Source of the DNA: Desulfocapsa sp.
GTDB lineage: Bacteria > Desulfobacterota > Desulfobulbia > Desulfobulbales > Desulfocapsaceae
Assembly: GCA_022712975.1 (NCBI GenBank)
Contig: JAFLJO010000006.1
Coordinates: 1-64,000, forward strand
DNA length: 64,000 nucleotides
Direction: 5' to 3'
Below the pieces are notes generated by a model. That model worked only from the letters and a program-made list of their open reading frames with translations, was not told where the DNA came from and made no database searches. Below, in pieces: positions 61,398 to 64,000 of the stretch. The stretch's first letter is position 1. Every line of letters begins with the position of its first letter. The position numbers and the translations under genes were made by a program.

Positions 61398-61565
61398 GGT
61401 TAGAATCAGCATGTCATAGTCGAGAAATCGTTGTCCAATCGGTTTCCGCATGATTGATATCAGGAAACTGGATAATAACTTGTTATAACTATCTGCGAAA
61501 TCAAGAAGCGGAACAAATAATCGATTGTAGGAAAAGCAGAAAATGGGGATGTGACTTAATTTTTG

Positions 61566-61700
61566 ATGTTAAATCTAGCGTGGACGTGGAAAACTAATCC
61601 TGAGAAAAAGCAAAAGCGAGTTTCGATGTTTGCCATGCTGGAATGTAGAGAAAATAAGTTCGACAGGATATCAAAAGATTTAAGAAAGAGCAAAAGCTAA
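61566..61700 (+). CDS. Candidate 44-aa cassette ORF (MLNLAWTWKTNPEKKQKRVSMFAMLECRENKFDRISKDLRKSKS)
   Basis: ATG to TAA in cassette 1; overlaps an imperfect repeat, so coding status is doubtful. Confidence 0.25.
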   Translation: MLNLAWTWKTNPEKKQKRVSMFAMLECRENKFDRISKDLRKSKS

Positions 61701-61750
61701 TTTTGATGTTTGCAAAGATTGACGTGGAAAAAATAAGTGCGACAGTATAC
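61606..61750. repeat. Two imperfect ~66-bp direct repeats (61606-61671 and 61685-61750) inside cassette 1
   Basis: AAAAGCAAAAGCGAGTTTCGATGTTTGCC...GAGAAAATAAGTTCGACAGGATAT vs AAGAGCAAAAGCTAATTTTGATGTTTGCA...GGAAAAAATAAGTGCGACAGTATAC. Confidence 0.75.
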
Positions 61751-61797
61751 TTGGCTCTTGAAAAGTAAGAATAATTAGGAGAATAATCTGCTGAATT

Positions 61798-61857
61798 TTA
61801 TAACAATTCAAATGCAATGGACGCAAAAAGCCGCGCCATTGATTTGTGATGTTACAT
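61798..61857 (+). repeat. attC-like recombination site A (60 bp)
   Basis: R'' TTATAAC; CAAATgCAATGGaCGC pairs with GCGCCATTGATTTG leaving two extra bases (G, A) on one arm; R' GTTACAT. Confidence 0.85.
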
Positions 61858-62010
61858 TGCCCGGCACATAAATCTGGAATCCTTCGTTCTCATTTGTTGT
61901 TATCTTGAGGATATTGGCAGGCTCTAAGCTTCTTGCTATTGGTTGTTCCGTGCTATTTGGGATTGCATTTTTCATAATTGAAGTGGTCGTCCCGCCATCT
62001 GGCGCCTGCG

Positions 62011-62505
62011 TGTAACCACTTGCTATCTAGAAAAGTATTTGAATAAGACTGGTTACTGCTTCATAGTTTGGCAGGTTCATCTGGTCTACAAATGGGGAAT
62101 AGGAAAATACGTTTTCAACTCCACATCCGTGTGAGTATTGGCCAGATGCCCAAACTGTGCTGCGTTACTATTCCTGCCCAGATTGCATGTTTGATATATG
62201 GGTAGATTTTTCAGCAAGCTGGCATTTGCATTTTACCACTTGCAGCTTGGGAGTTGCCCATGGGTAGGATCTTGCTGGCTACTTGCTTTATCGGTTCCAG
62301 GCATAAAAAGATTCCCTTTGTGGTGAGAAATCCGGGAATTCAAATTACTATTTCTGGTTCCGTGCCTTGAGCAACCATCCCTATAAAGCAAAGAGTCTTA
62401 ATCAAAGCTGGTTGCTGCTTTATTGTTGGTATTTTTATCTGGGTTCATAGAGGGGAAACAGGTAGAATTGTTTTTAAAGCACCATTTGTATAAATATTGG
62501 CCAGC
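62011..62505. repeat. Degenerate ~135-bp direct repeat, ungapped 359-bp offset (about 62011-62146 and 62370-62505)
   Basis: TGTAACCACTTGCTATCTAGAAAAGTATTTGAATAAGACTGGTTACTGCTTCATAG... vs AGCAACCATCCCTATAAAGCAAAGAGTCTTAATCAAAGCTGGTTGCTGCTTTATTG..., both ending near ATTGGCCAG. Confidence 0.75.
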
Positions 62506-62595
62506 TGGCTTGGAACTGTTCTTCGTTTAAAGCTCAGTCCGGCATGCAACACACGGCAGGTAAAATACAAATCGCATTCCATGGCACCGCCAGGA

Positions 62596-62717
62596 ATGTA
62601 ACAAAAAAATGCACCCGACTGGCTCACACGCGCGATCTTTTGATGTTAATCTAAGTAATTGCTACGCCCAAAGTTTCCGGTGAATCCATGGCCAGCCGGT
62701 GATTTAGGACGTTATAC
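62596..62717 (+). repeat. attC-like recombination site B (122 bp)
   Basis: R'' ATGTAAC; AAATgCACCCGACTGGC pairs with GCCAGCCGGTGATTT (reverse complement AAATCACCGGCTGGC); R' GTTATAC. Confidence 0.82.
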
Positions 62718-62742
62718 ACTTTGAGTTAAGGAGTTTTATCCG

Positions 62743-63585
62743 TTGTTTAATTTGATTGTTAAAGGGAGAGGCTGGGCTAATAACCGTGATAGCTTCTTGA
62801 GTAGTCGCATTTTTGAATACACATCGGATAGTCTTGTTGAGCGTTTCAAGCCTAACGGACAATTAGACTTTAATTCATTAATGAATCTTCCTACTTTGTT
62901 TATGGAAGAGTCGTGGGGATCAGAGCTAAAGTCTGCAAGAGTTGGCACGATTGTTAGGGCTAGTATATCTGGTGAAGATATAGCTTTAGAATATTACTAT
63001 GACCCTGACATTACACCAATTTCGAATAGTGAATTAGAAGCTATTTCAAATGAATTGGACATGGTTGATTTTGAGTTTCACAGAACCCACTGGGCAGTGA
63101 AGGATCAAGATATTTTTCGGATCTTACTTCGGCATGCCCAACCTCGCCGAAATCAACCCAAGGTTTTTTCACTTAATGATCCTGAGCAAATAGAAAATGT
63201 CTTAGTATCAGCCATGATGCCTTTCTCACCACAATTTGATAATGTTCATCAGACTCTGATTGAAGTTTCTGAACAGTTCAATTTAAGGTGTCGCCGTGCT
63301 GATGATATCTGGGAGAATCCAGCCGTAATTCAGGATGTCGTTTCATTAATCGATAAATCAAGAATTGTTATCTGCGATTGTACCGGCCGCAATGCCAACG
63401 TTTTTTATGAGGCTGGTATTGCACACACCCTTGGCCGAGAGGTAATTCTTATCACTCAATCTAAGACAGATATTCCTTTCGATTTAAGACATTTGAGATA
63501 TGTGTATTACCTCAATAATGGGGAGGGGCTTCAAGAACTTCGATCTAAACTTGAAAAACGTATTTCTTCACTACTAGGAATCTAA
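62743..63585 (+). CDS. Cassette-encoded protein with C-terminal TIR-like/nucleoside 2-deoxyribosyltransferase-like domain
   Basis: 'VSAMMPFSPQFDNVHQTLIEVSEQFNLRCRRADDIWENPAVIQDVVSLIDKSRIVICDCTGRNANVFYEAGIAHTLGREVILITQ'. TTG start 32 nt after the core site. Confidence 0.75.
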   Translation: MFNLIVKGRGWANNRDSFLSSRIFEYTSDSLVERFKPNGQLDFNSLMNLPTLFMEESWGSELKSARVGTIVRASISGEDIALEYYYDPDITPISNSELEAISNELDMVDFEFHRTHWAVKDQDIFRILLRHAQPRRNQPKVFSLNDPEQIENVLVSAMMPFSPQFDNVHQTLIEVSEQFNLRCRRADDIWENPAVIQDVVSLIDKSRIVICDCTGRNANVFYEAGIAHTLGREVILITQSKTDIPFDLRHLRYVYYLNNGEGLQELRSKLEKRISSLLGI

Positions 63586-63588
63586 CAT

Positions 63589-63723
63589 ATGCTTAACACA
63601 TCCACCAGACGGCAAGAAGCATGGCAGCGCTCACGCGAAAGCATTAGATTAAAAATACAACCATACAACGCAACTTACAGGCAACCCCAACAAATGGGAC
63701 AACCTTCTGTAATAACACATTAA
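63589..63723 (+). CDS. Candidate 44-aa small ORF between the TIR-like gene and attC C
   Basis: ATG immediately after the upstream stop, same frame: MLNTSTRRQEAWQRSRESIRLKIQPYNATYRQPQQMGQPSVITH. No family recognised. Confidence 0.2.
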   Translation: MLNTSTRRQEAWQRSRESIRLKIQPYNATYRQPQQMGQPSVITH

Positions 63724-63724
63724 A

Positions 63725-63859
63725 GTATAACAATCGTATCCAGCCGACCCCAAGCAGAGCGGTTTTTCAAATGACCATTATCGGTTGTTTTAGGTTCACA
63801 ACTCCGAATAACCTTCACAGGTAAGATCGCTTGGGGCAGGCTGATACCGGACGTTATGT
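63725..63859 (+). repeat. attC-like recombination site C (135 bp)
   Basis: R'' GTATAAC; GTATCcAGCCgaCCCCAAGC pairs with GCTTGGGGcaGGCTGATAC; R' GTTATGT. Confidence 0.85.
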
Positions 63860-63899
63860 GTAAGAAACGAAAACAATAATTACATACAAACCATCACTC

Positions 63900-64000
63900 A
63901 TGGAATCTGAAGCAAACGTAAATATCACACTCTCCGGTGCAACTTCAAATGATATTACAATATTAGCAAGTCACCATCGAAAGATGTTCAAAGAAATATG
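63900..64000 (+). CDS. 5' end of next cassette ORF, possible GNAT N-acetyltransferase (truncated by window edge)
   Basis: MESEANVNITLSGATSNDITILASHHRKMFKEI...; the 'LASHHRKMFKEI' pattern resembles GNAT N-termini. ATG lies 47 nt after the core site. Confidence 0.4.
   Translation, partial: MESEANVNITLSGATSNDITILASHHRKMFKEI

What the first reader, a model, noticed from the sequence alone, without database searches (positions are those of the whole stretch)
61482..64000. Integron-type gene cassette array with no integrase nearby (CALIN-like)
Three attC-like sites were identified by arm complementarity. Independently, each R'' 7-mer is the exact reverse complement of the core site that opens its own cassette: GTTATAA/TTATAAC, GTTACAT/ATGTAAC, GTTATAC/GTATAAC. 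That rule is expected from the integron site-specific recombination mechanism and is hard to get by chance. CDSs lie on the + strand with attC at the 3' end, so an intI would be expected to the left, yet none of the left 61 kb encodes a tyrosine recombinase. The array therefore looks like attC cassettes lacking an integrase, or one separated from it.
Basis: partly seen in the sequence, partly recalled or inferred. Interest (0 to 1): 0.85.

Follow-up and report, generated by a model that had tools for sequence, protein, structure and literature searches.

The report
Integron array with attI, integrase elsewhere
The window ends in a real integron gene-cassette array that has kept its own docking site but lost the recombinase gene beside it; an intact recombinase with a nearly identical docking site lies elsewhere in the same draft genome, which carries about seven such docking sites, only one of them beside an intact recombinase gene.

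Summary
A covariance model trained without any site from this contig finds exactly the three predicted attC sites (61798-61857, 62596-62717, 63725-63859) and nothing else in the window. The array runs on past the window to six attC in all, and the pairing rule holds in 30 of 34 consecutive attC pairs genome-wide (shuffled mean 3.8).

"CALIN" is only half right. There is no intI on this contig, but the array starts at an attI (61349-61484, crossover after G61482) preceded by the first 11 nt of a deleted intI. An intact integron integrase sits on contig C112 beside a 92%-identical attI. The same first cassette (99% identical) follows both attI copies, and the change from 92% to 99% falls at the crossover point. 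Four relatives lack the insertion: there the flanking genes adjoin each other.

The draft genome has about 79 attC hits and seven attI copies; only one adjoins an intact intI. Relatives also carry attI copies without intI, and at several the first downstream R'' matches the attI core.

Best reading: one integrase, several dispersed attI-anchored arrays used in trans. Trans activity is inferred, not shown. Known parts, unusual distributed arrangement.

The parts
60280..61302 (+). AMIN-domain protein gene, chromosomal left flank of the insertion
   Evidence: PF11741, 66.3 bits; orthologue in G005 86% identical
61201..61326 (.). Chromosomal stretch duplicated (93%) on contig C129 at the other end of the insertion
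61339..61349 (-). First 11 nt of a deleted intI (ATGGTCAAAGT; C112 has ATGATCAAAGT)
   Evidence: sequence alignment
61349..61484 (+). attI; crossover between G61482 and T61483; includes a degraded copy of the intI promoter region (about 61406-61440, minus strand)
   Evidence: 92% identical to the attI beside intact intI on C112; attI model hit 105.9 bits; promoter scans
61483..61851 (+). Cassette 1, no + strand ORF of 55 aa or more, multi-copy in the genome
61798..61857 (+). attC 1, R'' TTATAAC, R' GTTACAT
   Evidence: model hit E 2.8e-8; R'' complementary to attI core
61852..62711 (+). Cassette 2, no + strand ORF of 55 aa or more; its 5' part is also found at other array contigs
62596..62717 (+). 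attC 2, R'' ATGTAAC, R' GTTATAC
   Evidence: model hit E 1.1e-23
62712..63853 (+). Cassette 3
   Evidence: bounded by cores of attC 2 and attC 3
62743..63585 (+). CDS, 280 aa, TIR-like C-terminal part, widespread unnamed family
   Evidence: PADLOC TIR effector 34.9 bits; 4662 homologues
63725..63859 (+). attC 3, R'' GTATAAC, R' GTTATGT
   Evidence: model hit E 9.5e-22
63854..64000 (+). Start of cassette 4 (two GNAT acetyltransferase genes), continuing past the window; attC 4-6 at contig positions 64916-65048, 65957-66078, 66434-66557

Best explanation
This is an integron cassette array anchored on its own attI but without its own integrase gene. An integron fragment (start of intI, attI, cassettes, ending in a truncated attC) was inserted between an AMIN-domain gene and a lipoprotein gene, with a 126-150 bp stretch of the AMIN gene duplicated at the far end. 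The one intact integron integrase of the genome, on contig C112 beside a 92%-identical attI, most likely recognises this attI too, so cassettes are inserted and excised here in trans. The genome thus has one integrase and several dispersed attI-anchored arrays. Shown: the attC array, the attI, the intI remnant, the intact intI elsewhere, the empty site in relatives, the same cassette at both attI copies. Inferred: that IntI acts here in trans, and how attI was copied to new places.
For: attC sites confirmed by an independently trained model and the pairing rule. IntI on C112: TIGR02249 378 bits against cut-off 265, divergent from its attI. Window 61339-61482 differs from the C112 attI at 12 of 144 bp, while the following cassette differs at 1 of 139; the change falls at the crossover point (Fisher p 0.003), as expected if the same cassette was inserted into two diverged attI copies. 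Eleven of those 12 mismatches lie in 61346-61414, in and around the degraded intI promoter region; the 68 bp next to the core carry one. Empty site: AMIN and lipoprotein genes adjoin in G005, and AMIN is followed by the same convergent gene sequence in G011, G012 and G004; here the lipoprotein gene is on C129 behind a duplicate of the AMIN 3' end, with an attC half nearby in the same array direction. Seven attI copies in the genome, one with intact intI. At intI-less attI sites C84, C71, C9, G018C124, G014C154, G009C88 and G011C2 the first downstream attC has R'' exactly complementary to the attI core.
Against: No recombination was observed. Cassette homogeneity could come from homologous recombination between repeated cassettes. 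Contig C112 ends 139 bp into its first cassette, so the comparison is short. The genome is a 181-contig draft with 4.2% contamination, probably a MAG; C84 and C112 could come from different strains, although their flanks are 88% and 92% identical to G005. Some relatives have intI pseudogenes beside attI, so in-place decay also happens. In G005 the C100 flank ends in an intI-start-like stretch without attI, so attI copies may also be lost. Several attI-like sites have no matching attC downstream.
Confidence: 0.66

Rival explanations
1. Decayed integron: a second complete integron stood here, intI was deleted, and the attI and cassettes are inert leftovers that no integrase uses now.
For: Only 11 nt of intI remain and its promoter region has degraded; relatives carry intI pseudogenes beside attI; [quoted passage not shown]
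Against: The cassette after this attI is 99% identical to the one after the C112 attI although the attI copies differ by 8%, so it arrived or was homogenised recently; the attI half nearest the core is nearly unchanged; an intact IntI is in the genome.
Confidence: 0.25
2. Ordinary CALIN formed by cassettes inserted by an integrase at a non-classical chromosomal site (attG), with the attI resemblance limited to the core.
For: attG insertion is described as a source of dispersed cassettes (cited in PMC12444791 and PMC12901181).
Against: The homology to attI covers about 144 bp including the intI start, far beyond a core site; a model of attI scores 105.9 bits here.
Confidence: 0.03
3. Assembly or binning artefact: C84 and C112 come from different strains, or the AMIN-attI junction is a chimera, so the integrase and the array are not in one cell.
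For: 181 contigs, 4.2% contamination; arrays break at repeated cassettes; draft assemblies inflate CALIN counts (PMC9024848).
Against: The AMIN-attI junction lies inside a contig; the other end of the insertion is seen on C129 and no uninterrupted AMIN-lipoprotein copy was found in the bin; five attI loci have flanks 88-93% identical to G005; G011, nearly closed, also has one attI with intI and one without.
Confidence: 0.1

Closest known systems
CALIN (cluster of attC sites lacking an integron integrase; PMC9024848)
   Same: Two or more attC in a row with no intI nearby; standard software would call it a CALIN.
   Different: Headed by a homologous attI and an intI start remnant; an intact, cognate-looking IntI is in the same genome.
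Sedentary chromosomal integron (as in Vibrio or Xanthomonas)
   Same: Many cassettes (about 79 attC hits), toxin-antitoxin and DNA methylase cassettes, attC types shared across the genome.
   Different: Cassettes are spread over about 45 contigs and at least seven attI copies rather than one known platform; the genome is fragmented, so array sizes are unknown.
Xanthomonas integrons with inactivated intI, and CALINs at other loci (PMC12444791)
   Same: intI lost or damaged while cassettes remain; CALINs away from the main locus in the same genome.
   Different: A single ancestral platform beside ilvD; the passages read here do not report extra attI copies at the CALINs.
Delta-attI-type cassettes of class 1 and 2 integrons (PMC12901181)
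   Same: attI sequence found away from its usual place beside intI.
   Different: Those carry 14-18 nt (one 244 nt) of attI at the 3' end of a cassette; here about 136 bp of attI stand at the 5' start of an array, next to chromosomal sequence.

Membership tests
Integron gene cassette array | Tandem attC sites with conserved hairpin structure | tested here: met
   (site 2 by model and stem, not by folding energy)
Integron gene cassette array | R'' of each attC complementary to the core opening its own cassette | tested here: met
   6 of 6 on this contig including attI to attC 1; 30 of 34 attC pairs genome-wide
CALIN | At least two attC and no intI nearby | tested here: met
   six attC, no tyrosine recombinase on contig C84; IntegronFinder itself was not run
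CALIN | Only attC sites, without the rest of the platform (strict reading; attI is not part of the software definition) | tested here: not met
   attI at 61349-61484 and intI start remnant
Complete integron | intI adjacent to attI | tested here: not met
   only 11 nt of intI remain; the intact intI is on contig C112
attI site | Homology to an attI adjacent to an intact intI, with cassettes starting at the G/TT crossover | tested here: met
attI site | Recombination with attC by IntI | not testable with these tools
   needs a recombination assay
Integron integrase (C112) | TIGR02249 match above cut-off over the full profile | tested here: met
   378.1 bits against 265, profile 3-313 of 315
Delta-attI-type cassette | attI fragment at the 3' end of a cassette, preceded by a cassette ORF | tested here: not met
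   left of the window attI is chromosomal sequence, not a cassette

The most novel reading that the evidence does not exclude
A distributed integron: attI is dispersed through the chromosome as a small module cut near the intI start, so that one integrase serves many separate insertion platforms in trans, and the arrangement recurs across the genus.
Probability: 0.35. Interest if true: 0.72.

Novelty: new variant of a known kind. Interest (0 to 1): 0.52.

Why it matters
Integrase-less arrays are usually counted as degraded remains, and standard software does not look for attI outside class 1. If such arrays have kept attI and are served in trans, one integrase can write cassettes, including toxin-antitoxin and possible defence genes, into several places with different neighbours. 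It also makes a question testable from sequence: whether a given CALIN is a fossil or a working satellite platform, by looking for attI, for the match between its core and the first R'', and for cassettes shared with the intI locus.

Tried and rejected
Rfam scan: no match to any family in the window. A hand-made attC scanner gave many background hits in the left 60 kb; it was replaced by a covariance model. Loci C71, C74 and C100 were tested for two-sided empty sites in G005: the left flanks align and stop before or at attI, but the right flanks of G005 are not found as flanks in the genome, so only C84 and C112 have two-sided support. At C100 the G005 copy diverges exactly at the left edge of attI and keeps an intI-start-like sequence, so it may be a loss in G005 rather than an empty site. 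Purifying selection on intI-less attI: the last 27 bp are 90% identical between intI-less copies against 50-71% elsewhere, but some copies were found through that motif, so this is supportive only. The cassette 3 protein matched no solved structure. Paper searches for duplicated or multiple attI returned nothing describing this arrangement in open-access papers; subscription papers are not covered.

Full report
What was checked. The window is contig C84 (bases 1-64000 of 66692) of a 3.3 Mb, 181-contig draft genome (98% complete, 4.2% contamination). The best-matching named relatives of its integron integrase include SEEP-SRB2 and Desulfobulbaceae MAGs. I built a covariance model of attC from 24 sites on other contigs, leaving out every site of C84. 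The stem is supported by covariation. Three more attC follow on the same contig, and 79 hits lie on about 45 contigs of the genome. The array is real.

What heads the array. Window 61339-61621 aligns without gaps to the end of contig C112 (95%). On C112 this is the region between an intact integron integrase gene (487-aa frame, TIGR02249) and its first cassette, that is, its attI. The window copy has the attI and the first 11 nt of intI (61339-61349, minus strand); then the gene is cut off and chromosomal sequence follows. The contig has no tyrosine recombinase, so 'no integrase nearby' is correct, but the array is not a bare attC cluster.

Two attI, one cassette. Left of the crossover the two copies differ at 12 of 144 positions; right of it at 1 of 139 (Fisher p 0.003). 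The break falls where an integrase would join a cassette to attI. The same cassette start is found about 99% identical at further array contigs (C33, C36, C151, and again at the end of C84). The simplest reading is that one cassette was inserted recently at several sites, including this one. Homologous exchange between cassette copies is not excluded. The mismatches in the attI half cluster in and around what is the intI promoter region on C112 (one search shows a 10-of-12 promoter-like match there; one search shows none at the same place in the window). The 68 bp next to the core have a single mismatch.

Where it sits. In G005 the AMIN-domain gene left of the array faces a lipoprotein gene directly, and G011, G012 and G004 show the same convergent arrangement without attI. 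In this genome the lipoprotein gene is on contig C129, followed by a 126-bp, 93% copy of the end of the AMIN gene and, some 200 bp further, what reads as half an attC in the same array direction (a short match, read from sequence, not called by the model). So a fragment of an integron, from the start of intI to part of an attC, appears to have been inserted between these two genes with a flank duplication. Its full length is unknown because the contigs end in repeats. The intI locus itself is also an insertion relative to G005, where the flanks found on C112 and C97 are adjacent.

Many attI, few intI. The genome has seven attI-like sites ending in the same crossover (C84, C112, C100, C74, C71, C109, C9), only one beside an intact intI. 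Intact intI was seen beside attI at G011C1, nearly intact at G018C119 (one stop), damaged at G015C49, G021C147 and G003C101, a fragment at G015C48, and none convincingly detectable within the available flank at the other sites examined. At seven intI-less sites, the window's included, the first downstream attC has an R'' exactly complementary to the attI core, which marks the first cassette as inserted at that attI at some time. G021 has two attI copies about 99% identical on different contigs, both without intI, which points to recent copying.

Mechanism. Shown: array, attI, intI remnant, intact intI elsewhere, absence of the insertion in relatives, shared cassette with a break at the crossover. 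Inferred: the C112 integrase uses this attI in trans. That cassettes of integrase-less arrays can be mobilised in trans is stated in PMC9668308 and PMC12444791; a second attI would add insertion at a defined site. How attI copies spread is open: insertion of integron fragments (as here), duplication followed by intI loss, or an unknown route. A cut near the intI start recurs at several loci, but at C100 a relative carries the intI-start-like sequence without attI, so gains and losses are mixed.

Placement. Known kind: integron arrays and CALINs. What differs is an attI-headed, intI-less array in a genome with an intact integrase and several such platforms. I found no open-access paper describing dispersed multi-copy attI, which is not proof of absence. 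The main weakness is the draft assembly.

Noticed in passing
61483-62711: Cassettes 1 and 2 have no + strand ORF of 55 aa or more, yet parts of them are repeated at 96-100% identity at several array contigs; cassette 1 has two ~80-bp imperfect internal repeats. Promoter or RNA cassettes are possible.
   Followed up: partly
62743-63585: Cassette 3 encodes a 280-aa protein with a TIR-like C-terminal part and an unassigned N-terminal half; 4662 homologues, including one in Vibrio alginolyticus, and no Pfam family: a widespread unnamed family, perhaps a defence effector.
   Followed up: partly
L014 about 6550-6560 (contig C84 66550-66560): The last cassette junction of the contig reads GATTATAAC instead of GTTATAAC, one extra A at the crossover; the contig ends in this repeated cassette.
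   Followed up: no
L127 (C109) 3266-5754, minus strand: An attI-like site lies downstream of two attC in the same direction, as if two arrays were joined or attI sat inside an array.
   Followed up: partly
L029 (C71) 681-4865 and L032 (C74) 7465-8902: Other intI-less attI loci lead cassettes with ParE-type toxin genes and, on C71, a cytosine-5 DNA methylase with an adjacent unassigned gene.
   Followed up: partly
L193 and L196 (G021 contigs C17 and C22): Two attI copies about 99% identical whose left flanks and downstream sequences differ, so the shared block is only about 140 bp.
   Followed up: no
L213 (G005:C11) about 4667-5009: The G005 sequence orthologous to the C100 flank keeps an intI-start-like stretch but breaks off exactly where attI begins in C100.
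   Followed up: partly
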